Assembly: GCA_961205875.1 (NCBI GenBank)
Contig: OY540822.1
Span: 9,426,501-9,490,500 of the forward strand
From: Sialis fuliginosa
Taxonomy: Eukaryota; Arthropoda; Insecta; Megaloptera; Sialidae
DNA length: 64,000 bases
Reading direction: 5' to 3'
Shown here: positions 17,480-60,838 of the stretch, in pieces
Layout: every line of letters starts with the position of its first letter
Numbering within the stretch: the first letter of the stretch is position 1
Notes under the pieces: model-generated
What the model saw: only the letters and a program-made list of their open reading frames with translations
The model's database searches: none
What the model was told of the DNA's origin: nothing
Program-made: the position numbers and the translations under genes

Positions 17480-18967
17480 ATGAATACTGTCGTGGTAAGT
17501 ACTAGTGATTTTTTGTGTTTTCATTTTTTACCGTCGAGTGCTTTTTTATTTTATCAAAAAGTGTTGTGCTTCGAAAAAAATGGATTACCCTGGATTTTTT
17601 TATAATTTGAATATAAAAAAAGTTGTGTTAATTTTTTTTTTGTGAAAATTGTGGTTTATTTTTTAATTTTTAATTTCATACTTCATTTGTCTTCTATGTC
17701 TTTAAAAATACGGAAGCTTTGTATGAAAATACTTTGGAACAATGCTTCCTTCTTTATTTGACATTTAGTAGTCTATCATTTTCATTTACTCTTTCTGTGT
17801 ATTTCAAAATGTAGTTCAAATTAATTAACTATTAAATGATCAAGTTTAAGGAAGGAAGGAATTTAATTAAAAATCAAAAGCACTCAATCGGACAATGAAA
17901 AAAAAAATTATATCTGTTAATAAATGATTTATTGTTTTCAGCTCTTCGCTGCCTTGGTGGCATTAGTTCAAGGGCGTCCTGAAGCAGGATACAGTTACCA
18001 ACCTCCAGCACCACGTCCGATACCTTCAGGAAGTTACGGTGCTCCAGGAGGCGGTGGTCATGGCGGTAGCATTGGAGGTGGACATGGCGGCGGAATCGGC
18101 GGCGGAATTGGTGGAGGACATGGAGGTTCAATTGGCGGAGGTCATGGAGGCTCAATTGGCGGAGGACTCATAAGCGGAGGAGGCGGTTTCGGAGGTAGCG
18201 GAATCGGAGGAGGTTTCGGAGGTGGTTCCATTGGCGGAGGTTTCGGAGGTGGCTCTATCGGAGGAGGTTTCGGAGGAGGTTTCGGAGGTGGTTCTATCGG
18301 AGGTGGTGGATTTGGTGGTGCTCAAACCGCCATTGTCCAGAAACACATCTACGTACATGTACCACCACCAGAACCTGAAGAATTCAGACCACAAAGACCA
18401 ATTCACGTAGCTCCACCACAGAAACATTACAAAATCATCTTCATTAAGGCACCAACCCCACCAACCCCCACTGCGCCAGTTATTCCTCTCCAACATCAAA
18501 ACGAAGAAAAGACTCTCGTATACGTACTCGTCAAGAAACCAGAAGAAGCCCCAGAAATCGAAATCCCAACTGCTGCTCCAACCCAACCTTCAAAACCAGA
18601 AGTATACTTCATCAGATACAAGACCCAGAAACAGTCTGTCGGAGGCGGTGGAATCGGAGGCGGAATCGGCGGCGGAATCGGAGGCGGAATTGGAGGCGGA
18701 CTTGGAGGTGGACTCGGGGGCGGAATTGGAGGCGGACTCGGGGGCGGAATTGGAGGCGGACTCGGGGGCGGAATCGGTGGAGGACATGGTGGTTCAATCG
18801 GAGGCGGTATCGGTGGAGGACATGGTGGAATTTCTGGAGGATCAATTGGCGGTGGAATCGGTGGTGGACATGGAGGCAGCAGTATCGGTGGTACTGGCAT
18901 TGGTGGTTCTGGCCCATCTGGACCATCCTCAAGTTACGGCCCCCCAGGACAAAGTGGACCATATTAA
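17480..18967 (+). CDS. Glycine-rich Tweedle (DUF243) cuticle protein
   Basis: Predicted secreted structural protein of the chitinous cuticle. Exon 1 (17480-17494, ATG to GTG, donor gtaagt) encodes only MNTVV. Exon 2 (17942-18967, acceptor tgttttcag) continues in phase to TAA, giving 346 residues. Residues 1-16 ([16 protein letters not shown]) form a signal peptide split by the intron, as is common in cuticle genes. A Gly-rich stretch (~28-135) precedes the Tweedle core at ~138-235, with its four blocks visible: [41 protein letters not shown] and [14 protein letters not shown] second Gly-rich stretch of GGGIGGG/GGGLGGG repeats (~238-325) ends in [12 protein letters not shown]. Tweedle proteins are known to shape larval and pupal cuticle and some bind chitin. 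The Gly-rich arms on both sides suggest an elastic or hydrophobic matrix role (inference). Stop-free frames on the other strand and in other frames are shadows of the repeat. Confidence 0.93.
18633..18890 (+). repeat. Coding minisatellite (Gly-rich repeats)
   Basis: Near-identical 12-24 base units (ggaggcggaatcgg, ggaggcggactcggg) are tandemly repeated inside the Tweedle gene. A less regular array is at 18046-18310. Such arrays change length easily by slippage or unequal exchange, so length variation between individuals is likely. Confidence 0.85.
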
Positions 18968-22101: not shown

Positions 22102-22272
22102 TGTATCTTTGTCTGAAATTGCTGAAATTCAACGTTTTGGAAAAGCATTAATAGAATTTGTATAAAAAAATGTTTTATCCCGTGTACAAATAATCAAAAT
22201 TTACTTGTTGTGTTTTTTATATATTTCTTACTCTAGAAATCAAATGTAATTTCGATCTGTAAAGAATGAAAT

Positions 22273-22726
22273 AAGGTAGTGGCACCAGTCTTGGGAAGGA
22301 CCCCAGTAATGGTAAATTTTTCATTAAATGTACTAAATTAGAAATTTGTGTCGATATTTGATTACTACCATTTCTGAATATACATTTAACTGTCTTACAG
22401 CGTGATTTGATGACAATCGGCTAAAATGTGTCAAAATGGTGGACATTCGAACTAATTATTAGTATAATTTATTTATTAATTATTATATTATCATAGCAAC
22501 TGATTCTTTCTTTTATATCTTTTGTGTCGTAGTACTTATCATTTTGTAATCATTAGCAAGTGTCCATCACTGCGTCTTCATTACTAAAATAAATGGCTAT
22601 AATTTAAAAAAAAACTATATTTCCGGACTTTGTTAATTAAATTGATTTTATTAGTAACAACAAGCCCATTAATCAAAAAAACCGAAATCTTGCTCTTATA
22701 GCGGCCGTAACTGGTGCATTTACCTT
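22273..22726. mobile_element. Family A element
   Basis: Ends AAGGTAGTGGCACCAGTC and 'actggtgcatttacctt', flanked by AT on both sides. Non-coding. Confidence 0.8.
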
Positions 22727-25885: not shown

Positions 25886-25966
25886 AGGTTGGTATTAACT
25901 TGCACACATGTATATATTTTTTATTTGTACATATATAAATTTATATAGATGTTAATATAAGTATAT

Positions 25967-26454
25967 AAGGTACTGGCACCAGTCTTGGATATAACCCCAG
26001 TAATGGCTATTTTTTAATTAAATGTACTGTATCAGAAAAATTTGTTGATATTTGATTACTACCATTTCTGAATATTAATCTATATACATTTAACTGTCTT
26101 ACAGCGTGATTTGATGACAATCGGCCAATAGGTATCAAAATGGTGCACATTTAAACTAATTGTTAGTATAATTTATTTATTAATTATTATATTATCATAG
26201 CAACTGCTTATCTTTTGTGTCGTAGTACTTATCATTTTGTAATCATTAGCAAGTGTCCATCACTGCGTGCTCATTACTGGTTTTACTTTAAAAAACAAAC
26301 AAACTATATGGCATTTGGTAATTAAATTGATTAAATAAAGAGTTACTTGTTTTATTAGTAACATAAGTTCATGATAATTACAAAAAAGAAGCCCGTCGAT
26401 CACAAAAACAATAAACCTTGCTCTTATAGCGGCCATAACTGGTGCCAGTACCTT
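25967..26454. mobile_element. Family A element, best-preserved copy
   Basis: Symmetric ends AAGGTACTGGCACCAGT and ACTGGTGCCAGTACCTT, flanked by AT. At 488 bp it serves as the family reference. Non-coding, presumably mobilised by a transposase encoded elsewhere. Confidence 0.85.
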
Positions 26455-29278: not shown

Positions 29279-32200
29279 GAGGCTGGAGTGTTCTTCGAGA
29301 ATGGTCAGTACAATCATGGGATTTTCGAAGGACCCTGGAGCGAATTCTAGCTCAGCATGGAGCGGCTCCATTCTTTCGGATTAGTGTAGAGCCCCACCCG
29401 AGACATCCGGGGAAGAGTAACATCGTAACAATCCGTCCAGCAGGTTTGGGCCTTCCAGATAGAAGTTTTTACTATTTGGATTCAGAAAATAATGTAAGCT
29501 TTATTATTATATACATATATATTCAAAATATTTCTAGAAAAAGAGGGTAATGCTCATGGGTGTACCCAGGATTTTGTTTAAGGGAGGGGGGGTCAAATAT
29601 TTTTTTTAGAAACTGATTTAATCGGCGCGTTTCGCCTAGGACCCCGCTGTAAAGGGGGGGAGGGAGTCTCAAAAAGATGGGTAATTGACTTTTTCAGGTG
29701 TTGAAGAAAAAAAATGTGTACTGCCATTATAAATGAGCATTATTGTAAACAAACATTGCGTAATTTTTCCTTTTTTCTTAAATATTCGATTGTTTCTGCA
29801 CTTTGTAACGTGAAATTCCGCGATTTTTGTCAACTCGATAGATTACTTTAAATCAATATTTCGGTGTGACGTATCGAGGAATTGTAAAAAGGTAATGAAA
29901 AATATTTATCATTTCAACAAAAAATATTCACGTTTTTAATTCTTTTTGAATTTTTTTTATCTTATACAAAAATACAAAAATGTATTCTACCTAGCTATCA
30001 ATTTTAGTTGGATTCATTCATTCTAATTCAGGTAAAAAATTGATCTAGCTTGACTGGTCTATAAGATAAAATAAATTAAAATAACAAATGTACATTGTCT
30101 AGAAATATTCTATACTTTTTGAGCACAAGCTAGGGAGGGGGCAAGCGCCCCTCTCTCTGCCCTCCCTGGGTACGCCCATGGTAATGCTGAAAACTCATTA
30201 TTCAATTTGTAAAAGTAAAATTCATAATTATAGTATAAATTTAAAAAAATTACAGATTGTGTCAGCATATAAAAGACTTATTCGAGATATAGTGAGTATC
30301 TTCGAAGCAACAGGAAGTGATGCTACAAAATTCAGTAACGACATGTTTCATTTTGAAAAAAGACTGGCTGAAATAACACCTGATACATCATCTCTAGAAG
30401 ATCCAATAGCAACCAACAATATCATAAGTGTTTCTGAACTAAAAATTACAGCGTCTATTGTAAGTGACAGCTACAATCATTTAAATAATTATTAGTATTT
30501 GTAATTAATACTAATTATTATTTCAGTTGCCTTTACGTGAGATTTTGGTTGCGATGTTTCCACAGGGGAAGATAACCGATGACACGGAGGTCCTTGTTTT
30601 GTCCTTAGACTATTTAACAGCTGTATCTGTCCTTATTTCTAACACAGAACGTAGTGCGTTGAATAATTATTATATGTGGACACTCGTGAGGGAATATTTG
30701 CCATACCTTTCATCAGAAGTCAGAGATGAACTCCATGTATACAACTCAGAACTTACAGGTATATATTGTATTTATACCGGAAGTAAATGCCATGCGAAAT
30801 ACCGAACCGGTGAAATTTTATGCACTCGTGTTTTTGAAATCAGAAACGGATGTTTGCCTACTATCGTTAGTTTTTTAGTTTTGTCTAATTGTTTTTGTTG
30901 TTTTTTTTTTGGAACGGTTTGTGATATAAAATAATGTTTTAACCCAGCAGTGGAAACGTTTGGTCTATCTGACCCAACGATATTTATTAAGAGCACTATT
31001 AACAAAATGAAATTATTTCTTTACTTATCAAATTGAATCATGTTAAACATCTCTAGGGTGACCAGGCCTCAGGTTTTGACCCGAAGTCTCAGGGTTTCGC
31101 TGCAATTTCTCCGGGTTTTGCAAAAAATGATGACAAGTAAAAAATAGAGCAGGGGGCGAAAAAGTGCAGATTAGGGTAGTAAATTTTATCAAAATAAAAA
31201 TAAAAAGAATAAAATAAAAAAGGTGTCTTCATTTACATGTCAGGATTTACAAAAACTAAAATCTGGTCACCCTAAACATCTGACATTCATTAGTTTTATG
31301 TCCGGTATTATAAAGGAGCTCCCAAAATAAGCTAGCTTGCAAGCACTCTCAAATGGGATACTAATTCTGTACTAGTATCTATGAATTAGCTATGGAATTT
31401 AGAGCAGTGACACTTTATACTGCCTCCCCTCCCCCCCTCTAGAAAAAAGTTGGTTCTGGCGACACTGTTCACTAATCTTAGAAATAAATATGGGGTATAT
31501 TATGTGATTTATAATAGACTGGGGATCTAATGACATTTTTTACTTAATAATAAAATAGTTATGTAATTAAAGAGTGCTTTAAATAACCCATAATGTATAA
31601 CGGGTCTGTTACACCCAACGTTCCCACTGACTTCACGATTTTTCACGTTTTCACTGCCGAATTGTTAATGTTTTGGTCTACATTCGCATTTTGAAAAATA
31701 CGTTGTAAATGTTAATTATTTTGATTTGTAACATTAGGTGTCAAACAGCCATTAGAAAGATGGGAAGAATGTGCAATTACAACAAGACGGTTCATGGGAT
31801 TGGCAGTCGAAACTCTATTGGAACATGAACAAAGAATTACAGATAGAGAAAGAGAGACTGTTTATAATACATTTACTGACATTAGAATAACTACAAAATC
31901 TCGTATTTCAGAAAGAAATTACCCATCTAATTTAGAAAAACATTTAATGCATAAGGTAACTTACATTTACATAATACTAATTCAATTTAATTTTTAAGGA
32001 TGTATGGCACATACAGTCTAAGTCAAAAATAATGTAATTATGAATTATTCACGTCAAATTGGTTTATAAACTACATAAACTATAAAAATACTTTTGTTTA
32101 AAACCTTATTTCCCATTATTGACTGTTATTTAAAAGAATATTTATGTTGATAATACAAAAAAATTTTATTCTAAATTCATCTGTCAGATATAAAAAACAA

Positions 32201-36453: not shown

Positions 36454-36863
36454 AAATAAATATTAACATTGATTCTACTATCTGAATTATAAATTTCGTG
36501 GCTATTTATTTAAATATAAATTTGATAAAAGTGATTGTTGTCTTCCTTACGTTTTATTCTTCCTATTTTAATTAATATTTATTAGTTTATTACTATTTGA
36601 AATCCATATATTTTATTTTGTAATATTTTATGAAAGTATAGTTATTTATCGTAACTATCTTGATAATTTTGTAAGTTATATTTTGGGTTTTATTTATTTT
36701 TTAACCTCGAGAATTAAATATTTTATCAAAATATAGTTTTTTAACATTCAACAATATTCCTATTTCTTTAAAATTTTATAAAATTGAGGTAAGTACTTCA
36801 TATTAAGTTATATCATATGTAGTTCAACATGCTAATTTTTAAAAATTCAGATCAATTATGTTA

Positions 36864-36903
36864 TGGATCCGAATGCAACTTTTTTTGGGCATATTTGGAA
36901 TCA
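36864..36903. repeat. Arm of a 38-bp inverted repeat with 38578-38616
   Basis: 'ggatccgaatgcaac' … 'gggcatatttggaatca' is mirrored at 38578-38616 with three or four differences. The next words 'gggtgccctaatacacacg' recur directly at 38911 ('gggtaccctaatacatacg'), so the satellite and left part of the 38-kb element share a common older framework. Confidence 0.75.
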
Positions 36904-36941
36904 GGGTGCCCTAATACACACGTAACACTACGGCACATTTT

Positions 36942-37590
36942 TTTATGCGGATTTTAAGTTTCTAGCCTCGAAAATGACCACTTATGGACTAGTATTAAGT
37001 GAAAATCAAAAATATATACGGTAAAGACTGTTTACGCGGATTTGAAGTTTCTAGTCTCGAAAATGACCACTTATGGACTAGTACTAAGTGAAAATCAAAA
37101 ATATACAATAGAGTCTCTGTTTATGCGGATTTTAAGTTTCTAGTCTCGAAAATGACCACTTATGGACTAGTACTAAGTGAAAATCAAAAATATACAGTAG
37201 AGTCTCTGTTTACGCGGATTTTAAGTTTCTAGTCTCGAAAATGACCACTTATGGACTAGTATTAAGTGAAAATCAAAAAAATATATGATAAAGATCTGTT
37301 TACGCGGATTTGAAGTTTCTAGTCTCGAAAATGACCACTTATGGACTAGTATTAAGTGAAAATCAAAAAAATATATGATAAAGTATCTGTTTACGCGGAT
37401 TTGAAGTTTCTAGTCTCGAAAATGACCACTTATGGACTAGTACTAAGTGACAATCAAAAATATATACAGTAGAGTCTCTGTTTACGCGGATTTGAAGTTT
37501 CTTGTCTCGAAAATGACCACTTATGGACTATTACTTAGTGAAAATCAAAAATATATACAGGGTGTTCTCTCTTTACGCGGATTTGAAGTA
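36942..37590. repeat. Tandem satellite, 7 units of 89-91 bp plus a partial
   Basis: Unit starts ('tttaYgcggattt') at 36942, 37031, 37120, 37209, 37299, 37390, 37481 and 37572. Each unit contains 'cttatggactagtactaagt', a short palindromic core (CACTTA..TAAGTG). Identity is ~92-97%. The array is followed at 37597-37620 by a bare family A right end ('gactggtgccactacctta'). Confidence 0.9.
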
Positions 37591-37967
37591 AGTCATATCC
37601 AAGACTGGTGCCACTACCTTATTATAATATATTAACATAATATAAAATTTTTATTCAATTGATTGTATACGTATTAGTATTAGTATTTATTAATAGTTTA
37701 TTGATAGATAGTGATTTGAACTCATCTGATTACTTTCAAATTTCTTCATAATATATAGTGTATCTTTAATTCTTGAGAGGGGTAGACGAGACCCCAAGGA
37801 CCCCCCCTTCTCCCTTTATATACTCGCCTGCACGCATACTGAAACAAAAGGTAAATGGTTTAGGTACTTGTATATTATGTACATATATAAAAATAAATAA
37901 AACACTGAATATAATTTCATCTTGTTTTTATTTAATTTTCAGCAGTACATAGTACAATACTGTATAT

Positions 37968-38083
37968 CTGTGTAGATAAACAGGTAACATAAAACTAATT
38001 AAGAACATCTATATAGATAAATAGATGTTATAAATTCAGTAAGTTAATAAACATACGTATTATATCTGTGTAGATAAACAGGT
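37968..38083 (+). repeat. Hairpin-motif block 1 (outer left arm)
   Basis: Three hairpins with loop G/ATAGATAA: 37968-37983 (CTGT/ACAG), 38006-38027 (CATCTAT/ATAGATG) and 38066-38081 (CTGT/ACAG). Confidence 0.85.
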
Positions 38084-38370
38084 ATACATATCAAATATTA
38101 ATTTAATATAATTATGATATAAAAATTAAATCGCATATAAATACAAGTGGCGCCATCCCTCTTTGAAAAGCAACACTACTAATTACAGATTTCTGCATTA
38201 TCGAAATTATAGTTCATATAAATGAGATATAATGTACGCACCTCCACCATATGGTGTAGGTGCACCTATAATACATAGCATGTATGTATGTATCAACAAT
38301 GACGCCATGTAATAAGTAAGTATGCATGTATTATTTATAAAAAAGGTAAGTACAGTGAATAGTACAATAC

Positions 38371-38496
38371 TCTATACCTGTGTAGATAAACAGGCTACAA
38401 AAAAACAATTAAGAGCATCTATGTAGATAAATAGATGTTATAAATCCAGTAAGTTAATAAACATACGTATTATACCTGTGTAGATAAACAGGTATA
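38371..38496 (+). repeat. Hairpin-motif block 2 (inner left arm)
   Basis: Three hairpins around GTAGATAA: 38377-38394 (CCTGT/ACAGG), 38416-38437 (CATCTAT/ATAGATG) and 38471-38496 (TATACCTGT/ACAGGTATA, 9 bp perfect). Confidence 0.9.
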
Positions 38497-39712
38497 TTAT
38501 AAAATCAAATCGCATATATTCAATATAAGGGTGTATCGGATTTTGTACTGAAAAATACACCTATTTCAGTTTCATTTGGAAAAAATATGATTCCAAATAT
38601 GCCCATAAAAAGTTGCGCTCGGATCGATAAAACGGTTTTTTATCAACTTTTGTCTTAAACAATTTCATCAAATTTTGAACCAGTGAATTGATTTAAAATC
38701 TATTATCATTTATGATATCTACGAGTCATATTACATACAATGGAGTGTCAATTATTTTCAAATTCAATAAGGATGTGTTTTTCAGTGCGGTAATTGATAC
38801 ACCCATTTTGAATTTGAAAATATTTGATCTCATATATTACACAAGATTAAATTTCCTTCGTTTGTTAAAAATTTCAAGTTAATTTTTTAGACAAATTTTG
38901 ATAAAAAACAGGGTACCCTAATACATACGATTGCGTCTAACTTGTTTAGAAAAATTGGCTTAGTCGGAATGGCTTCTGAAAAAATTATCGAAATTTTTAA
39001 AGTACATGTAACGACATCTAGCGTGAAAACTGGCTGAATTATATTGTTATGTAGTTCAAGCATGGTCCAAGCCACAAATTATTAAATACATATAATAAAA
39101 AGCTAATACAGGACAAACGATCGCGACAGTACATCTGGGAACTTTCTGGTTAAGTTGTGCGCATTCGATCAGTCGTTTTTCAACTTTCGCGCAGGTAACA
39201 ACTGACATTTGCTATTGTTAATTATTATATGTAAAAATATCGAATTAAATACGGTTTGCTGTGTCATTATAACATGCCACAATCAATGTGTCAGTGTTAA
39301 CAAAGGGAACAGTGAGATAACTTCTCATGTGTAAGTATTTATATTTTCAAATATTTTGTACGGCATATTTATTATTATTGTTCTCTGCGCATGCTCGAAC
39401 AGAACCAGATTTACTGTTATGTGATATTAAAGTGTAAATTTATTTAGGTATTATTTTTTTTATATACAATTTATATTTGCAAATAAATAACTGTTATAAA
39501 TAAAATAATATTTATTATTTTACCGCCGACAAACTCTCACTGTGTAGTGTTAAAATTGTCTTATGAGCCTTTTATTATTTTTAATGTTCTGTGGTTCAAG
39601 CTGTTTCTGCTAGATTTTTTAAATTTCAATATATTTTTCAGAAGCCATTCCGACTAAGACAATTTTTTAAATAGAGTTTAGTATTTGATAATATCATATA
39701 TTAAACATATGT

Positions 39713-39832
39713 AAACCTGTTTATCTACACAGGTTTAATACGTATGTTTATTAATTTACTGAATTTATAACATCTATTTATCTACATAGATGCTCTTAAT
39801 TAGTTATTTGTTACCTGTTTATCTGCACAGGT
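39713..39832 (-). repeat. Hairpin-motif block 3 (inner right arm, inverted)
   Basis: On the + strand the loop reads TTATCTAC: 39713-39736 (AAACCTGT/ACAGGTTT), 39771-39792 (CATCTAT/ATAGATG) and 39813-39832 (ACCTGT/ACAGGT, loop TTATCTGC). Confidence 0.9.
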
Positions 39833-40077
39833 TATAAAATATTGTATAATTGAAAATTACTTACCTTATATATATCGATGCACCTATTGTTAAAATACTT
39901 TTTATTGTATTGTGAATAATAAAAAAATAAAATAAAACAGTACATTTTGGGATTCGAACACTGAACCCTAGGGTTGCGAGGGAGGTAAATACATGTGAGC
40001 TAAATTTTTTTAAGGTATTTTGAACTGATGTTTTCTCAAAAGATACGTTTTTTTTAGACCACTGAATATTTCGTGGG

Positions 40078-40096
40078 TGGGGGGGGGGGGGAGGGT
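40078..40096. repeat. Poly-G tract
   Basis: A run of about twelve or more G inside 'gtgggtggg…gaggg'; prone to slippage and a potential G-quadruplex on this strand. Confidence 0.8.
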
Positions 40097-40429
40097 CGTC
40101 GTCGATATCTGAATTAAGAAATTGGTTCGTGTTTGACGATGTATAACTTTGTAACTAATAATCACATAATTTTCTAAATGGTTTTAAAATGTTCGTTATT
40201 TAATCTAGTTTTATGTATTCGAAATTCAACTCAATAATTTTTTAGTTACAGCTTTAACGTAAAGTAAGTTAAAAGAGATAGAAATGCTGACTTTGTTGAC
40301 TTTATTAAATTTTTTTAATAAGATTATTAATATGTGTTTCCTACGTAAATTTTTTATCAATATGTATTCATTAAAATTATATACTTACTATCTAATAATT
40401 TTATATTATTATTTGTTAATACTATAGTC

Positions 40430-41170
40430 TCCAAAATTAATAAATTGCGTCATATTTACATTCAATTTTAAAATATTTTTATTGTACCAATTAGATAAGT
40501 TAGTCATTGTTAGTTTAAGTAAAGAATTATTGCCAAGAGTGTTAAATATGATTGATGTATCGTCTGCATATGTACATAACTATTTTGTTGTTTATTATTT
40601 TAGGTAAATCATTCATATATATTATAAATAATAAAGGAATTGATCCTTGTAATACGCATTTATTTATTATTTAGTAATGTTATTTTCGAAAAAGTGTCAG
40701 TCATGTTATTGTTTATCATCTTAATTTTAACTATTTGTTCTCTTGTTAAATTAATAAGAGAGTATATTAATTTTAGTGCAAGTCCCCATATTCGAAAGCT
40801 TTTGATAGGATTAGAAATGCAACCATTTTTATTATTCCATAAATTTATAAAATATTTGTAATAGCTTTAAAAATGGCATTAGATGTTGATGATTCTTTAA
40901 TGAAACCAAATTGTGATTTATAAATTATTATTGCTATCAAAAAAATGTAAAAGTCTATTAAGAATTTTTTTACAAAATTTTTTCATAATTATCCATTGAC
41001 TTTTTATTGCCTTTTTGAATATGGGAACAACAATTGCTGTTTTTAATTTGTATGGATATATACCTAATGATAAACAACGATTAAAAATATATCTTAAAGT
41101 ATATGTAATTAATGAAGCGCAATATTTTATAATAAAATATAAAAATATATATAACTTCATCCCATCCAAT
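40430..41170 (-). pseudogene. Decayed non-LTR (LINE) reverse transcriptase fragment
   Basis: Read on the minus strand in several frames, the region shows successive reverse transcriptase landmarks: 'LGIYPYKLKTAIVVPIFKK' (40990-41110), 'QFGFIKESSTSNAIFKAI' (~40860-40915), then 'QGSIPLLFIIYMNDLPKI' (~40600-40640) and a YADD-type catalytic box at ~40570 displaced by a 4-base frame change. Order and spacing fit a jockey/CR1-like LINE RT that would polymerise cDNA from its own RNA. Frameshifts and stops make it dead. No endonuclease or tail is visible. Plus-strand frames at 40640-40861 and 41015-41305 are shadows. Confidence 0.75.
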
Positions 41171-41461
41171 AAAATATATATTTTTAAAATTTTAAATCGT
41201 ATTGTAAATTTCAGAATTACTTCATTATTTATTATTGATTTTGAATATATTTATATGAGAGCATATTTTGTACCAAGTGTGCTTTATTTTGTATTTTATA
41301 TATAAATAATAAAGATCGATTTTTTTTAAACTACTGTCTTTTTATTTTCTCTCTTTTCAGATCGACCTCAGTTATTTTTAGAACTTACAAAAAGCATCTA
41401 TGTCAATAAGTAGATGTATTCATATATTAAACATACTAAATGATGTACTGATAAAAAAAAT

Positions 41462-42172
41462 GTTGCTATGGTAACTCCATCTAGCGGCAAAATGATCAAC
41501 TATCGGAAATCGTGACGTCATTAGCCGAGATAAGCTCCGAAATCTGAAATTTTTGCTGTTATATAATGAAAACGGAGCTTGTCTTGGCTAAGTTTATTTA
41601 TCTTTGAAGTAGTGGCGACATCTTGCGGCAAACTGATGAACTACCAAAAATCGTGACGTCATTAGCCGAGATAAGCTCCGAAATCTGAAATTTTTGGTGT
41701 TATATAATGAAAACGGAGCTTATCTCGGCTAAGTTTTTTTTGCTTGATAATAGTGGCGCCATCTTGCGGCAAAATGATGAACTACCAAAAATCGTGACGT
41801 CATTAGCCGAGATAAGCTCCGAAATCTGAAATTTTTGGTGTTATATAATGAAAACGGAGCTTATCTCGGCTAAGTTTTTTTTGCTTGATAATAGTGGCGC
41901 CATCTAGCGGCAAAATGATGAACTACCAAAAATCGTGACGTCATTAGCCGAGATAAGCTCCGAAATCTGAAATTTTTGGTGTTATATAATGAAAACGGAG
42001 CTTATCTCGGCTAAGTTTTTTTTGCTTGATAATAGTGGCGCCGTCTAGCGGCAAAATGATGAACTGCCAAAAATCGTGACGTCATTAGCCGAGATAAGCT
42101 CCGAAATCTGAAATTTTTAGTGTTATATAATGAAAACGGAGCTTATCTCGGCTAATGACTTCACGATTTTTT
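41462..42172. repeat. 141-bp tandem array, each unit a hairpin
   Basis: Five units start ('cgtgacgtcattagccgag') at 41511, 41652, 41793, 41934 and 42075, an exact 141-bp period. Each has a 19-bp stem TTAGCCGAGATAAGCTCCG with its complement 33 bases later (41662-41680 with 41714-41732); the first unit has two mismatches. In the last unit the stem extends to ~35 bp. Each unit also has TGACGTCA, a CRE-like palindrome. Confidence 0.92.
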
Positions 42173-42177
42173 TTTAA

Positions 42178-42307
42178 TATACCTGTTTATCTACACAAGT
42201 ATAACAAGCAGGTTTATTAAATGACTGAATTTATAACATCTATTTATCTACATAGATGCTCTTAATTAATTCAATATTAACTGTTTATCTACACTGATAA
42301 ACAGTAT
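42178..42307 (-). repeat. Hairpin-motif block 4 (outer right arm, inverted)
   Basis: 42181-42200 (ACCTGT/ACAAGT, one mismatch), 42237-42258 (CATCTAT/ATAGATG, perfect) and 42280-42305, where the usual site is altered but a new 10-bp stem ACTGTTTATC/GATAAACAGT is formed. Confidence 0.85.
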
Positions 42308-42450
42308 TGTAGTATACAAATAATACTTATACATATAGAAATTGCTGAAAATAAAATAAAGAGAAGATAATATTATATTCAGTATTTTATTTTTTTAATT
42401 ATAATATACAAGATCCTAAGACATTTACTTATTGTTTCGGTATGCTTGAT

Positions 42451-43200
42451 ATATATCGGACAGTTACATACTTTGTAACTCTCCTTGGTTTTCCTGCTTT
42501 TGTGTTTATTGTAAATTAAATGCAAGAAAAAATACTAACGTCCAGAACATTCGTAATATTTAGTTGTTATAACGACTGGTCACTAATTTTACGGCACAGT
42601 ACTTCCTGTTCACTGAAATGAGAAAAATTTACACAAATAATAACAATATATTTTATTTCAGTAGTATACAAAAACTATGTACAAATGCAAAGTTACACAA
42701 ATGTAAATAATTATAATAAAAACCCTTGAATTATTTTGACAATACAAGTAAATAAAATAATTAATAAATTATATTATAAGCAGACAAAAAATCTGTATTT
42801 GTACATATGTTAAAATATTTAATTTGGCGATACACTTTTAGATATGCTACCTAAATTGGTGAAAACGGAACAAAAATAAGATGCCTTGACTGCATTTCTT
42901 ATAAAGAATATTTTTATTAATAAATAGGCATTACGAAACTCTAAAAATAGTTTTTGGTCACAAAATCCACAGAAAAAATGGTTTTGGGTCTTATTTTCTA
43001 TTAAAATAATATTATGAGTATTCAAGTAGAAGTGAAACAACATCTGACGACTCGTTTTATTCCTCTTAGGCCACAACACAGTTACAAAAAGTATTTAATC
43101 TTATAGAAAATTGAATCCTATTTGTTCATACAGTGTAAAATTCCCCAATTAAATCATAGCAATATAATAACTCAGTAAAGGTTTCAATATTAGAAAAATG
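42451..43200. other. Gene-free interval with a direct repeat
   Basis: 42570-42678 ('cgactggtcactaatttta' to 'atttcagtagtatac') recurs at 44152-44268 at ~80%. An 86-codon minus-strand frame (42819-43079) has no recognisable domain and is not called. Confidence 0.5.
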
Positions 43201-43204
43201 GGCT

Positions 43205-43549
43205 AATACCGAGACTCTGGGGGTCCTCTGTCAGATTTGTGAAAAATCACGTATATAGTTATTCAGAATAGGGTTGACGCGCATGCGTGACTAGATCAGT
43301 GTTAACAACTTTTATAAATCACGCATTTTATAAAACGACTGGCCACGTTTAGCTGTGTTATATTTAATTATTTAGTTTAAGTTAGAGTAGTCCAGGTAGA
43401 TTTGGTTCCCTTTCAGGTAGGGTTAGGTTAGGTTTATTAATTGCACTAAATAATATATTAACATAGATACAACATACTCTACTCTATTCTAACACATCAA
43501 CACGTGACTTTTAGAGTTTTTGACAGAGGACCCCCAGAGTCTCCGTATT
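43205..43549. mobile_element. MITE with 29-bp terminal inverted repeats
   Basis: 43211-43233 (GAGACTCTGGGGGTCCTC...) is perfectly complementary to 43521-43543, and the match extends to 29 bp with one mismatch. The interior includes 'ttctaacacatcaacacgtg', also found near 57470 and 57670 in the other orientation. Confidence 0.85.
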
Positions 43550-44944
43550 TACCGAAAAATGTATTTGATATTCAGAACACCCTCATCAGAGGGCTTAAAG
43601 TTTCATTATTTATTAATTTACGGGCTAACAGCTCTTAACAATTGGTTGATGTGAATTTATAAATATATACAGGATTTTATATAAAAGAATATGTAAACAA
43701 ACTATATTTAATGAACGAAATGTCCATTCAATCCAGCAGGTATAATTATTTACTTAATTTGATAATTAAAAATCAAACCTGCAATTGCTTGGCAGACAGA
43801 CATTTAGTCTAGCATAATTCCACTCAACTTCTCCAAGTTATCGAGAAATCAAAATTCCGTAAACAGTACGTTACATTTACAATCCAGAGTTTATGCGTTT
43901 CCTGTTTCAGATTCCAAAGAAATTATCAAAATGTTTCATTCGTTCACTGAAATATAATTGCATATTAAACACTTTCAAAGTTTAATTGTTTCGATAGACT
44001 AACCGATATTGGAAATGTGTATAGCTATACACTGAATTGAAGTTTCCTCTTGCAAATCCACATCAGTTATTACTTTCATTTCATAATTTGACAGATGCTA
44101 CCCAGAATATGGTAAAGGCGAGAAAAAAAACATTCGTTGTAGGTTAGGTAACGACTGGTTGGTAATTTTATGGCAAAGTACCTACTGTTGACTGAAATGA
44201 AAACATTTTACACAAATAATTACAATATATCTTATACATATCATATTATTTCAGTAGTATACAGTATATTCAACAATAAAAACTTATGATTTTGACATTA
44301 AAATCCACAGCCAATCAAATGTGACTGACATCAGCGCCATCGTTGTTCGTGTAGCAAAAATGTAAACTAATGATCCACCCACGCAATAAAATAAGCTTCG
44401 TTCACAACGAGCAATTTAAATTGAAAATAATTGATTCGAGATGTTTTACATAATATACTACTTAAAAAAAAACTCACAATACTTTAAAATAATCATGGGA
44501 ATATTTATTTCAACATTTAATACTTAAATATATCAAATTAAAATGTAACAAATAAGAATGCCATGTGAACGATTCTTAATTACCAAATTATTCAGCGACC
44601 AATGAAACGTTCAGAGTCAATCAGATAAATTTAAATTGAGAATGTATAATGTACCGATACTTTGCGAGTTAATTTAAATATTTTCGAGTTGTTTTCAGGA
44701 AAATAGAATTTGTTTTGACAGTACATTTATTCAACATTGTCTATACTAGTATGATGAGAATATAATACGTCTAGTTATTTTGAATCATAGTGCAATTTGT
44801 GTTGGTACCTCTGACGTTATCTTTAATGTCATGTGACAGTCAGGAAAAACATGAGTATTCTGTGATACATACTGTTGTTTTAAATAGATAAGTTTCATTA
44901 TTCTCTGGATTCTCTATTCAATATTTACATAATTATATGACAAA
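43550..44944. other. Upstream region of the selenophosphate synthetase gene
   Basis: Holds the second direct-repeat copy (44152-44268). No TATA box at a useful distance or other gene is evident. The 44290-44420 part is slightly GC-richer. Confidence 0.4.
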
Positions 44945-46429
44945 ATGAGTATTTCAAATACAGAAATGGTAATTATAAAAACGTTTTGTTGAAAGTGTAA
45001 TATTTTTATATTATAATATTTCTTACAGGATATATTAAAAGAAGAAGGTTACGTCCCTCTAACTAACTATACAAATTTAAGGGGGTGAGGTTGTAAAGTC
45101 CCCCAGGACGTTTTAGCAAACTTCTTGGCGGGATTTACTGAACATCAGTCATCTATTGTACCTTCAGATTCAGCACCTTCTATAGGTAATAGTGTTACTT
45201 TCTTGTATGCAGTACAACATGAAATCTATGAAACAACATTACACAAACTTCTAATGAAAAGCTATTTTTTTAAAATGACTAAATTTAAACTAACGTTTCT
45301 AATCAGCGATTTGTTTTACAGGTATAGGTTTAGATTGTGCAGTGATACCACTACGACAGGATGGATATTTTCTACTTCAAACGACAGATTTTTTCTATCC
45401 TATCATCGACAATCCTATTGAAATGGGTATAAAATAAAAATTTTAACTGCAATTACGTACAGGACAATAATTATGTATCATTTCAGGTCGCATCACTTTT
45501 GCCAATGTTGTAAGTGATTTATATTCCCTAGGAGTCGTTAACATCGACTGTCTATCTATTTTACTGTCGATTCCAGTAGATATGACAGACAAACAACGTG
45601 ATTGGGCATTCAAATATGTAATAGAAGGATTTAAAGTATGTTAACATCAGAACTATAATATTTTATACGTTGATAACTTTTATATTGTTTTATTTTCAGT
45701 TGTCAGCTACAGAAGCACAAATAAGACTTACAATAAACACTGTAAACAATAATCCTTGGTTTATTATGGGAGGAATAGCTACCTCTATTTGCACAAGAGA
45801 TGAATTTATAATGTAGGTATTATTTGGTAGTAACATATACAAAATTATAATTTACGTTTATAATTTTTAGGCCAGATAATGCCGTAGCTGGAGATGTTCT
45901 GGTGCTAACAAAAGCTTTAGGAACACAAGTAGCCGCTTTAGCTCAAAGTCGTCTAAGTCAGAAGGACGGAAGTGCTGACAAAATTTTAGCACTTGTTTCC
46001 GAGGACTGTCTTATGAAATCAATAAAACAGGCTCAAGTCTCTATGACTAGATTAAACCGAACAGCTGCTATGTTGATGCACAAATATAACGCACACGGAG
46101 CTACCGACGTAACAGGTTTTGGCATACTGGGTCATGCCGATAACTTGGCTAAATTTCAAAAAAACCAACTCACTTTCAAAATCGACACATTGCCTGTATT
46201 TGGGTGCCTGGATCAAGTAGCCCAGAGCTTAAATTATGCAAGACTTAGGAAAGGGACTTCGGCTGAAACATCTGGTGGACTTTTGTTAGCAATACCACAA
46301 CAAAATGCTAAGCTGTTCTGTGACGAAATAGAAAAAACAGACGGCTGTAAAGCATGGGTCATAGGGAAAGTAGAAAAAGGAAACAAGGATGCAGTTATTT
46401 GTGATAATTGTCAAATTATCAGTGTTTAA
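44945..46429 (+). CDS. Selenophosphate synthetase with in-frame UGA at the active site
   Basis: SelD/SPS family, whose classical members make selenophosphate from selenide and ATP for selenocysteine synthesis. Six exons: 44945-44968, 45029-45185, 45322-45426, 45487-45635, 45700-45812 and 45871-46429 (TAA). Read through UGA they give 368 residues (usual ~390-450). The N-terminal active site reads [15 protein letters not shown], with UGA at the Sec/Cys position and the essential Lys three codons on. [19 protein letters not shown] and NVVSDLY keep metal-binding Asp residues; [31 protein letters not shown] and [11 protein letters not shown] are standard. Odd: the conserved TGGQTxxNPW loop reads [10 protein letters not shown], and DNMLMLL reads DCLSILL, so the enzyme is divergent. 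It may be a Sec-type SPS2 or an insect SPS1-type gene retaining UGA. An ATG-to-UGA product would be only 27 residues, so readthrough or Sec insertion is needed. Confidence 0.93.
45086..45088 (+). other. In-frame UGA codon (recoding site)
   Basis: TGA falls at codon 28, between AGG GGG and GGT TGT AAA. The same frame continues open for ~340 codons across five further in-phase introns, and family homology continues on both sides. Confidence 0.93.
45090..45121 (+). promoter_or_regulatory. Post-UGA stem-loop (possible recoding element)
   Basis: Starting two bases after the UGA, GTTGTAAAGTCC can pair with GGACGTTTTAGCAAAC: 12 pairs, loop CCCA, four single-base bulges, with the innermost GTCC/GGAC uninterrupted. 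Stem-loops right after the UGA that promote redefinition or readthrough are known for SPS genes. Folded by hand only. Confidence 0.55.
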
Positions 46430-53080: not shown

Positions 53081-53603
53081 AAGGTACTGGCACCAGTTAT
53101 GGCCGCTATAAGAGCAAGATTTACTGTTTTTGTGATTGACGGGCTTATTTTTTTGTAATTCTCATGAACTCAAGTTACTAATAAAACAAGTAACTCTTTA
53201 TTTCAACAATTTAATTACCAAAGTCCGCAAATATAGTTTGTTTTTTTAAATTATAGCCTTTTATTTTGTTGTATGTTTTTTTCCGGTAATGGATAAAGGA
53301 AAACCAATAATGAAAAATGATAAATACTACGACACAAAAGATATAAAAGAAAGAATCGTTAAATTTGAAACAATGCAAAGCAGTTGCTATGATAGTATAA
53401 TAATTAATTAATTAATTATACTAATAATTAGTTTAAATGTCCACCATTTTGACACCTATTGGCCAATTGTCATCAAATCACGCTATAAGATAGTTAAATG
53501 TATATACTATATACTCAAATATCAAGACATATTTCTAATTCAGTACATTTAATTAAAAAATAGCCATTACTGGGGTCATATCAAAGACTGGTGCCAGTAA
53601 CTT
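53081..53603. mobile_element. Family A element
   Basis: Ends AAGGTACTGGCACCAGTT and 'actggtgccagtaactt'. It lies exactly between the two copies of duplication Y. Confidence 0.82.
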
Positions 53604-53727
53604 ATTTTATTATACAACGCGAATTCTTCTAGTTTCTATGATTCGTAGATAGGGAATTGGGGAGGATTTGGTAAAATAACGACATTGAATAAAATTGTAA
53701 GAAATGTTAAGTTTTTTTTTTACAAAT
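53604..53727. repeat. Local direct duplication Y, copy 2
   Basis: Direct repeat of the flanks of the 52601-53029 MITE; also shows a 'gaattgggg' difference near 53654. Confidence 0.85.
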
Positions 53728-58458: not shown

Positions 58459-60838
58459 ATGTTTCAATGTATTATTCAACAAAGAAATGGTTGGATCCAT
58501 GGTCCTATACCAGAACTGAAGGATGTTTTCCCAGGTTTGTTAAATGGAACAGTAAAATTAATCGGTTTTCAGCGTTTACAGATATTTTATTGTTTATTGT
58601 ACAGAATAGCAATTTTTTTTTCACCGTTATTTTCACGTATAATTTTTTTTAAGAAAGATCTTTGATCTGCTATAATTTAATACTGATGAGATAAAAGATT
58701 AAGCATTTTGGCAGTTTTTCTTTTAATATTATTATTCAGTAATATTACACAATAAAAAATATATAAAATTCAATAAATATTAACATATAATAAGACAATC
58801 ATGTTTTTTAAAATAAACTTTAGGTAGGTATTAATCAAAAAATTTTCTGAGTCATTTGAAAATTTATATATCTATCAATAAATGTTAATTTTGATTGATA
58901 TTTATGAATTAATAAAAAATATATAAGAACAAAAAATGGCTTCAAATAAAGTATCAATATTGTTTGCAGAAATAGGGTTTGCATTGATTTAAATCAGACT
59001 TAATTGATTTTTATAATAAAACTTTCGAACTATTTTAAATTATCAGATATATATATAAATAGTTAAGATTATTTTACGTTGATGTTAATGATAAAATACA
59101 TATGTTATACGATGAATTTAACAAAAATTGTTTTTTAGTAAAATATAAATAATTTGGGCTGTAAACACAAAAAATATGTGAATACTTGTACTAAAAAACG
59201 TACACAAGATTATTATTACCTATATAAAAAATGTTGTCTTGATTTTTAAATCGTTCTGTATTTATGGGCATTTTATTTAAATTACAAATCATCTAATAGA
59301 TAATTATGAAAATCAGCATGCAAGAATTTCAAATGATTAGAAATTTAATTATTTTCTTTGATTTCATATTAAATAAAATAGTGAAAGTGCTGAAAACTAT
59401 ACACATTAACTGAAAATAATATAAATACATATATGTATGTATAATAAAACATTTGTTGAAATAGAATTATAAATATAAATCCTATTCTATGTTATATTCG
59501 ATGTTATAGTCCAATATGACATATATTAACTTTTAACCATTATACTATAATAATTATTTTTTATATTAGAAATGAAACATTTGTAAGGTACTGGCAAGGT
59601 TTTTTGGAAATTGACGGGCTTCTTTTTTGTAATTCTTATCAACTCATGTTACTAATAAAACAAATACCTCTTTATTTGTTTTTTAAATTACAGCATTTTA
59701 TTTTGTTTATATTTTTTTTCTCCGGTAATGGATAAAGTAAAACCAGTAATGGGCATGCATTATAAAATAATAAATCGTAAAATTGTAAACAATGCAAAGT
59801 AGATGCTATGATAATATAATAATTAATAAATAGATTATTATACACTAATAGTTATTTTAAATGACTATCATTTTGACACCCATTGACCGATTGTCATCAA
59901 ATTAAGCTGTTTTACAGTTAAGTGTTTATAGATTATGATTCAGTAAACAATAGTCCATCACTGGGGTATTATCCAAGACTGGTGCCAGTACTTTATAATA
60001 AAAAAATCAATTTAAAAAAGTCAGCGAAGTGTATACATTTTCCTGGAATGATACATATTTTCACTATACTCCAATTTTGTTTTTAGATTTTACATCAGTT
60101 ACAGGCATTTCTTCAAAATTTCTATGGTTTCTTTTTTTCGCGGGTAAATAATTTTTAAATGTGTAACTCGTATATATATTTTTTAAATCAAATCAAAACC
60201 CGTATTTTGATACCCTTCTCGTATATACGAGAAGAAATTTTTGTTTTGTTACATAGTTTTTTTTTTATATTGCGACAAAAAAAAATAAATCACCTAACCA
60301 TAAAAATTGTAAGCGTTTAGGACTCTGATGATGATAGCATTGCTATTGAAACACGTGTAAGTCTAAACTCTTACAATTTTTATGGTAAGGGGATTTATAT
60401 TTGATAAGTCATAACCATAGTTTTTGTCTGTTGTTTTCAAATTTCAGCTTAATCGATTCAGTAGTTTTTCAGTTATGCTACAGACGTACGGACAGACACG
60501 TCAAAAAGTCTGCTTGTTCGCAAAAAAATATTAATAATCAAAATTGTTATTGATTGTTAGAAATTAACACATTTTATATGTTTCTCGAGAAAAAACGTTC
60601 ATTTCTACGTATAAGAAAGTTGGGTCTTGTTTACAATTGGGTTGTTAATTTCAGATATCAGACAGCAGTTGAATGAGCAGCTAAGATGCCTGGATATGCG
60701 AATGGAGGCCCAGGTGGCCCTCGTAACAGAACTGCAAGATTTCTTCAAAAGAAGAGGGGAACTGGAGTTAGAATATTCAAAAAGCCTAGATAAGTTGGCA
60801 AAAACATTGCAACTTAGGTACAAGGAACAAAAACACAA
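58459..60838 (+). CDS. srGAP-like protein, first two coding exons (F-BAR start; continues off the right edge)
   Basis: srGAPs are cytoplasmic F-BAR/RhoGAP/SH3 proteins that bend membranes and restrain Rac/Rho downstream of Slit-Robo guidance. Exon 1 (58459-58534) begins ATG and encodes MFQCIIQQRNGWIHGPIPEL then KDVFP to a phase-1 donor (G|gtttgt). Exon 2 (60655-60838, acceptor taatttcag) encodes DIRQQLNEQLRCLDMRMEAQ, VALVTELQDFFKRRGELELE and YSKSLDKLAKTLQLRYKEQK, then a phase-2 donor (AA|gtaagt). The pattern (I)RxQLxEQxxCLD...LLxDLQDFFxxxxExExxYSxxLxKLA is the N-terminal helix of srGAP F-BAR domains. Only ~87 residues of >1000 lie here, so the RhoGAP and SH3 parts are inferred. No further exon was recognised before 64000. 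Intron 1 (~2.1 kb) holds a family A element. The TSS is unknown. Confidence 0.85.
59585..59994. mobile_element. Family A element in srGAP intron 1
   Basis: Ends AAGGTACTGGCAAGG and 'gactggtgccagtacttt'. The left end has lost part of the consensus (~40 bases after the TIR). Confidence 0.78.
60290..60400. repeat. Small hairpin with CTGATGA..GAAA centre
   Basis: 'accataaaaattgtaag' is mirrored by 'cttacaatttttatggt'. The centre reads ctgatgatgatagcattgct then attgaaacacg. See the rejected-ribozyme note. Confidence 0.7.

What the first reader, a model, noticed from the sequence alone, without database searches (positions are those of the whole stretch)
37815..42450. Hairpin sites with a fixed GTAGATAA loop and changing but complementary stems
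Four ~120-base blocks (two direct, two inverted) each carry three hairpin sites. The 8-base centre GTAGATAA is almost constant while flanking stems differ between sites: CCTGT/ACAGG, CATCTAT/ATAGATG, AAACCTGT/ACAGGTTT, TATACCTGT/ACAGGTATA. Stem sequences differ yet pairing is kept, which suggests selection for the folded or dyad form rather than the exact bases. The blocks form the arms of nested inverted repeats spanning ~4.6 kb. I know of no described insect element with this layout. They might be binding or cleavage sites of an unknown transposase or recombinase, or part of a structured RNA.
Basis: partly seen in the sequence, partly recalled or inferred. Interest (0 to 1): 0.85.

Follow-up and report, generated by a model that had tools for sequence, protein, structure and literature searches.

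The report
Insect transposon ends with palindromic sites
A decayed piece of mobile DNA in an insect genome, probably a beetle's, has ends that each carry three short mirror-image sites; this most resembles the multiple binding sites at the ends of known jumping genes, although the mirror-image form of the sites is unusual.

Summary
Four related ~140-base blocks (A, B forward; C, D reverse) each carry three sites with a near-constant GTAGATAA centre between complementary arms: 76 of 84 possible Watson-Crick pairs, against 2.1 of 7 at an average place in the window. A and D lie in 256/271-base terminal inverted repeats with a sharp outer edge (37831, 42448). A fifth, lone, degenerate site lies at 41394-41417.

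The inferred covariation is weak. "Different stems" is almost entirely one split: outer and inner sites (CCTGT/ACAGG) against the middle site (CATCTAT/ATAGATG). Between copies of the same site 1 of 21 pairs changes on both sides; 135 of 500 shuffles match that.

Best reading: a dead, non-autonomous DNA transposon, probably nested with a second of its kind and broken up by other repeats, its sites being multiple transposase-binding sites. The layout (~250-base TIRs, three direct repeats, middle one different) is like Bari/Sleeping Beauty-type IR-DR ends, but TA duplication, tip site and transposase were not found, so it is not filed there. The host genome search did not complete; all rests on one window.

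The parts
37831..37945 (+). left outer part of the terminal inverted repeat (tip CACGCATACTGAAACA...), contains no hairpin site
   Evidence: aligned to 42341-42452 reversed, score 136 against a maximum of 58 in 300 shuffles; outside it 197 of 300 shuffles score as well; no site above background
37943..38096 (+). block A with sites A1, A2, A3
37972..37979 (+). centre of site A1 (CTGT/ACAG stem, then one T:G)
38013..38020 (+). centre of site A2 (ATAGATAA; stem AACATCTAT/ATAGATGTT)
38070..38077 (+). centre of site A3
38336..38505 (+). block B with sites B1 (38382), B2 (38423), B3 (38480); shares the edge motif AAGGTAAGTA with block C
38520..38935 (.). probable unrelated short repeat inserted next to block B (limits by eye, approximate)
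   Evidence: inner inverted repeats 38635-38680/38864-38909; 38588-38630 is repeated in reverse at 36861-36903
38939..39678 (.). second probable inserted element, inverted repeats 38945-38996/39621-39671 (90%)
39707..39874 (-). block C with sites C3 (39721), C2 (39778), C1 (39819)
40409..41250 (-). probable decayed reverse transcriptase remnant (LINE-like), in pieces
   Evidence: piece 40409-40579 matches Pfam RVT_1 weakly, E 0.0092, 16.1 bits against a cut-off of 29.6; pieces 40845-40982 and 40918-41250 did not match it; 40918-41250 found no homologue; the LINE-like motifs there are by eye
41394..41417 (+). lone degenerate middle-type site (E)
   Evidence: 3 mismatches in 24, none in 100 shuffles; its surroundings without the site are not significantly similar to the blocks
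41477..42155 (.). tandem array of a 141-base unit (4.8 copies) lying beside block D
42164..42329 (-). block D with sites D3 (42187), D2 (42244), D1 (42285; stem partly lost)
42340..42448 (-). right outer part of the terminal inverted repeat

Best explanation
The 37831-42448 stretch is a dead, non-autonomous DNA transposon. Its 256/271-base terminal inverted repeats each carry three directly repeated sites for a transposase encoded elsewhere. A second, smaller element of the same family (blocks B and C) probably lies inside it, and both have since been broken up by other repeats (a probable LINE remnant, two short inverted-repeat elements, a 141-base tandem array). Inferred action: transposase subunits bind the three sites at each end, with the asymmetric core TGTAGATAAA giving direction and two inverted half-sites (AYAGRTR type) giving the dyad, so that a dimer sits on each site. 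The outer and inner sites are one class and the middle site another, which would give graded binding that helps pair the two ends before cutting. Shown: the repeats, the dyads, the two site classes, the orientation, and that Pfam sees no transposase between the ends. Inferred: transposition, binding, dimer, nesting. The dyad is more simply a protein-binding form than a folded strand.
For: Terminal inverted repeats with a sharp outer edge. The 12 sites are direct repeats within an end and inverted between ends. Centres depart least from the majority base: 2 of 96 base cells, against 26 of 280 in spacers (Fisher p 0.022); the middle 22-base site 1 of 88 (p 0.008). Of the 2:2 columns of the block alignment, two join A with D and B with C, one A with C and B with D, none A with B: very weak support for two nested elements. 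Multiple binding sites in long TIRs are described as a convergent trait (passages of PMC3573991); three-site ends with strong outer and inner and weak middle binding are reported for Bari1 (passages of PMC3828361).
Against: No target-site duplication: the only 6-mer shared within 25 bases and lying outside both tips, TATATA, is expected by chance (63% of random pairs of 51-base stretches share a 6-mer). No transposase remnant in six read-through frames of 37800-42460. No second genomic copy could be examined. Over the block core A is closer to C and B (91%, 90%) than to its TIR partner D (86%). The lone + site at 41394 in the right half does not fit a simple nesting. The middle site, weak in Bari1, is here the best conserved. 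The p values treat bases as independent, were not corrected for several tests, and come from four copies.
Confidence: 0.68

Rival explanations
1. The sites act as folded hairpins: single-stranded DNA or RNA stem-loops with a recognised GTAGATAA loop, as in hairpin-recognising transposases or structured RNA.
For: Block B (the only block folded) as RNA folds better than 200 of 200 shuffles (z -3.83), as DNA better than 199 of 200 (z -3.21), with the three hairpins formed; the opposite RNA strand does less well (z -2.43, 2 of 200 shuffles as good). Across 11 distinct site rows 5 of 9 pairs change on both sides and the covariation score is reached by 0 of 500 shuffles. The three class-separating changes among the inner seven pairs keep pairing; three uncompensated changes (A1, A3, D3) leave T:G in the block sense.
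Against: The covariation is one class split, inherited by every block; within copies 1 of 21 pairs, 135/500 shuffles. Even across classes two measures are not unusual: number of pairs changed on both sides 39/500, further pair types 316/500. B1, C1 and D1 have real mismatches within seven pairs. Any palindrome folds well, so the folding score does not separate hairpin from dyad. Arms are not clearly better conserved than spacers (10/168 against 26/280, p 0.28). Blocks face opposite ways, so one transcript would carry both senses.
Confidence: 0.12
2. Host or element regulatory sites: the centre contains AGATAA, a GATA-factor-like motif, and the blocks are promoter or enhancer repeats carried by the element.
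For: AGATAA kept in 12 of 12 block sites, not in the lone fifth site (that AGATAA fits the GATA-factor consensus is recalled).
Against: It does not explain the dyads or the inverted placement; no gene driven from here was identified (not tested further); the motif is short.
Confidence: 0.08
3. Segmental duplication or satellite-like amplification: the blocks are copies of a minisatellite spread by local duplication and inversion, with no transposition.
For: Two true tandem arrays lie nearby (36942-37589 and 41477-42155); a fifth lone site exists; A is closest to C.
Against: The TIR outside the blocks is clearly shared only by A and D and ends sharply; the centre is conserved more than the spacers.
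Confidence: 0.12

Closest known systems
Bari (Tc1-like DNA transposons with long inverted repeats and three direct repeats per end, 'LIR-3DR'); also Sleeping Beauty, Minos, Paris, S
   Same: ~250-base inverted terminal repeats, three similar ~18-base sites per end, bound by transposase; in Bari1 outer and inner bind strongly and the middle weakly (passages of PMC4877112 and PMC3828361). Here outer and inner sites are one class and the middle another.
   Different: No site at the tip; no TA next to 37831; sites are palindromic ('palindrom' has 0 occurrences in PMC3828361); no transposase seen. Bari sequences were not compared letter by letter.
Galileo (P superfamily, Drosophila) and Foldback-like elements
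   Same: Long, internally repetitive TIRs that grow by duplication, copies without transposase, secondary binding sites in the repeats (passages of PMC3573991)
   Different: 7-base target duplication not found here; sequence of Galileo not compared
DINE-1 / Helentron-type elements
   Same: A short hairpin whose stem sequence changes between species while pairing is kept (passages of PMC2374699)
   Different: DINE-1 has one such hairpin near the 3' end, another inverted repeat near the 5' end, ~13-base sub-terminal repeats and TT insertion; here three sites per end within long TIRs

Membership tests
Tc1/mariner IR-DR element (Bari-like) | long terminal inverted repeats of about 250 bases (LIR type) | tested here: met
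   37831-38086/42178-42448
Tc1/mariner IR-DR element (Bari-like) | three direct repeats per end | tested here: met
   12 sites in 4 blocks
Tc1/mariner IR-DR element (Bari-like) | outer direct repeat at the very tip (recalled for IR-DR elements) | tested here: not met
   best matches to both site types in 37825-37945 and 42343-42455 are within the background of 300 random 120-base stretches
Tc1/mariner IR-DR element (Bari-like) | TA target duplication | tested here: not met
   the bases before 37831 are ...GCCTG, not TA, if 37831 is the true tip; the edges of B/C lie in TA-rich DNA and are uninformative
Tc1/mariner IR-DR element (Bari-like) | DD34E transposase | tested here: not met
   no transposase domain in six frames of 37800-42460; a non-autonomous copy would lack it
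Galileo / P superfamily | 7-base target duplication and THAP-type transposase (THAP recalled) | tested here: inconclusive
   TATATA shared near both tips but at chance level; no transposase
Helitron/Helentron | no long terminal inverted repeats; hairpin near the 3' end | tested here: not met
   long TIRs present at both ends
Known structured RNA | match to an Rfam family | tested here: not met
   36500-44000 gave six matches up to E 1, all below their gathering scores, all within 41512-42174, none covering a site

The most novel reading that the evidence does not exclude
An undescribed eukaryotic transposase family whose ends are read as structure: a fixed 8-base centre held between arms of any sequence so long as they pair, three times per end, so that a hairpin or symmetric dyad rather than a base sequence marks the element for movement.
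Probability: 0.1. Interest if true: 0.75.

Novelty: new variant of a known kind. Interest (0 to 1): 0.33.

Why it matters
If other copies show that the arms covary, this would be a rare case of a eukaryotic DNA transposon whose end recognition depends on dyad or hairpin form. If not, it is one more unnamed non-autonomous element whose ends carry the usual multiple transposase sites, useful for annotating the host's repeats.

Tried and rejected
Whole-genome search for further copies: the same genome search was sent nine times and never answered. Four exact-pattern scans of viral contigs: 0 hits (the tool warns that records near the window's own genome may be left out). One scan of bacterial/archaeal genomes with the middle site: one hit, a perfect AT-rich hairpin in a Clostridioides difficile contig whose flanks do not match the blocks, rejected as chance. 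Phage, plasmid and E. coli collections were not searched. Two text searches of PMC for eight site and tip strings: 0 papers. Six topic searches of PMC: listings seen; passages seen of PMC3573991, PMC4877112, PMC2374699, PMC4120734 and PMC3828361. Rfam: six sub-threshold matches, five to mir-8536, on or next to the 141-base array. tRNA: none in the window (bacterial-code ARAGORN). Pfam on six read-through frames: DUF6201 (E 2.6e-08, 34.3 bits, above its cut-off of 27.4 but no stretch passing on its own; best stretch lies in the 141-base array), DUF7334 (E 0.01) and MS_channel_2nd (E 0.047), taken as chance or repeat artefacts. LINE fragment against the protein database: 4 candidates, none scored. 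Host placement: DUF243 protein best match the firefly Abscondita terminalis, 86% over 29% of the query; other named beetles include Leptinotarsa 84% and Zophobas 88%, other beetles lie lower, and mosquitoes and a moth are at 78-79% (120 of 336 hits listed); the selenide water dikinase exon had no insect among the named hits (120 of 6473 listed). Considered and rejected: tandem-satellite origin as sole explanation; baculovirus hr-like palindromes (recalled; the centre here is asymmetric; no viral gene was looked for beyond Pfam).
Full report
What is there. Four blocks, A (37943-38096, +), B (38336-38505, +), C (39707-39874, -) and D (42164-42329, -), are 83-91% identical over a common 136-column core. 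Each has three sites in the same orientation, 41 and 57 bases apart (coordinates). The centre is GTAGATAA in 10 of 12 sites. Over the seven positions next to the centre 76 of 84 pairs are Watson-Crick; an average place in the window has 2.1 of 7. A window scan for this centre (up to one mismatch) with a stem of at least four contiguous pairs returns 10 hits, all in the blocks.

Two site classes. Sites 1 and 3 have the stem CCTGT/ACAGG (longer in site 3); in block B 22 bases around the two are identical. Site 2 has CATCTAT/ATAGATG. Lined up on the centre, the classes differ at three of the inner seven pairs (G-C to A-T, C-G to T-A, T-A to C-G), all keeping pairing. Over the 11 distinct of 13 site rows (the lone site included), 5 of 9 pairs have changes on both sides; the covariation score and percentage paired are reached by 0 of 500 shuffles, but the number of pairs changed on both sides by 39 and the number of further pair types by 316. 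And this is one split carried by every block. Comparing the four copies of each site, 1 of 21 pairs changes on both sides (C3, T-A to A-T) and 135 of 500 shuffles do as well. Of 10 arm cells that depart from the majority (9 columns), 2 make that one compensated pair; the other 8 are uncompensated, some leaving T:G in the block sense. Block D has lost pairs in site 1. Hence pairing is a real property of the sites, but continuing selection on pairing is not shown.

Conservation. Departures from the majority base: centre 2 of 96 base cells, arms 10 of 168, spacers 26 of 280; centre against spacer p 0.022, arms against spacer p 0.28, whole sites against spacer p 0.042 (uncorrected). The middle 22-base site has 1 of 88 (p 0.008). 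A lone fifth copy of the middle site at 41394-41417 has 3 mismatches in 24, none in 100 shuffles; its surroundings without the site are not significantly similar to the blocks (62 to 216 of 500 shuffles as good in four comparisons). The middle site is therefore the most durable part.

The element. Outside blocks A and D a further ~110 bases are inverted repeats (score 136, maximum of 300 shuffles 58) and the similarity stops at 37831 and 42448: beyond, 197 of 300 shuffles score as well. B and C share a short edge (AAGGTAAGTA; 0 of 300 shuffles as good) but no clear copy of the outer 110 bases (A against B 6 of 300 and A against C 8 of 300 shuffles as good; A against B 51 of 500 with shuffles of two-base blocks). 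In the block alignment the 2:2 columns are few: two join A with D and B with C, one joins A with C and B with D, none A with B; private changes are D 12, B 4, C 4, A 3. That is very weak support for one element nested in another, with D decaying fastest. Between the blocks lie a probable short repeat (38520-38935), an element with ~52-base inverted repeats (38945-39671), a probable decayed reverse-transcriptase remnant (RVT_1 E 0.0092 for one piece, below cut-off) and a 141-base tandem array (41477-42155). No transposase domain was found in six frames. A target-site duplication was not found: TATATA near both tips is at chance level.

How it most likely works. Inferred: the sites are the docking points of a transposase supplied by another element; three per end, all pointing the same way within an end, let several subunits bind and bring the ends together. 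The fixed asymmetric core gives direction; the mirrored arms suggest a dimer on each site. Ends with three direct repeats in ~250-base inverted repeats are described for Bari, where outer and inner sites bind transposase strongly and the middle weakly (passages of PMC4877112 and PMC3828361). Here too outer and inner are alike and the middle differs; against the parallel, here the middle is the best conserved and no site lies at the tip. The Galileo paper states that multiple binding sites look convergent among superfamilies (passages of PMC3573991). A hairpin with changing stem and kept pairing is described for DINE-1 (passages of PMC2374699).

Family. It works like an IR-DR or other long-TIR transposon end; it is not filed as a Tc1-like element because no TA duplication, no tip site and no transposase were found. 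Superfamily unknown. Dfam and Repbase were not available here, so 'undescribed' is claimed only as far as two letter searches of PMC go.

Limits. The host genome search did not complete (nine calls). Exact-pattern scans of viral contigs found nothing and one of bacterial/archaeal genomes gave one chance-like hit; other collections were not searched. So everything rests on four blocks and one lone site in one window. The host is an insect, probably a beetle.

Noticed in passing
41477-42155: Tandem array of a 141-base unit (4.8 copies, 95% matches) whose unit holds an inverted repeat (AGCCGAGATAAGCTCCG ... CGGAGCTTATCTCGGCT); sub-threshold Rfam matches to mir-8536.
   Followed up: partly
36942-37589: Tandem array of an ~89-base unit, 7.2 copies, just left of the element; its left neighbour 36861-36903 recurs in reverse at 38588-38630.
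   Followed up: partly
38050-38057, 38460-38467, 39741-39748: A possible fourth small hairpin in blocks A, B and C (TAATA-AACATACG-TATTA; positions of the loop), with a different loop; broken in D by eye.
   Followed up: no
45851-46429: Exon-like ORF for a selenide water dikinase C-terminal domain (AIRS_C) 47-58% identical to the 120 hits listed of 6473, among whose names no insect was seen; an unusually divergent or decaying copy.
   Followed up: partly
17924-18967: Glycine-rich cuticle-type protein with a DUF243 domain, best match 86% (over 29% of the query) to the firefly Abscondita terminalis.
   Followed up: yes
30515-30934: ORF piece with a Peptidase M13 N-terminal domain match (Pfam E 8.7e-12).
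   Followed up: no
37592-37654: Short repeat with further copies at 25933-25995 (-), 53575-53614, 59970-60001 and 22270-22294 (-).
   Followed up: no
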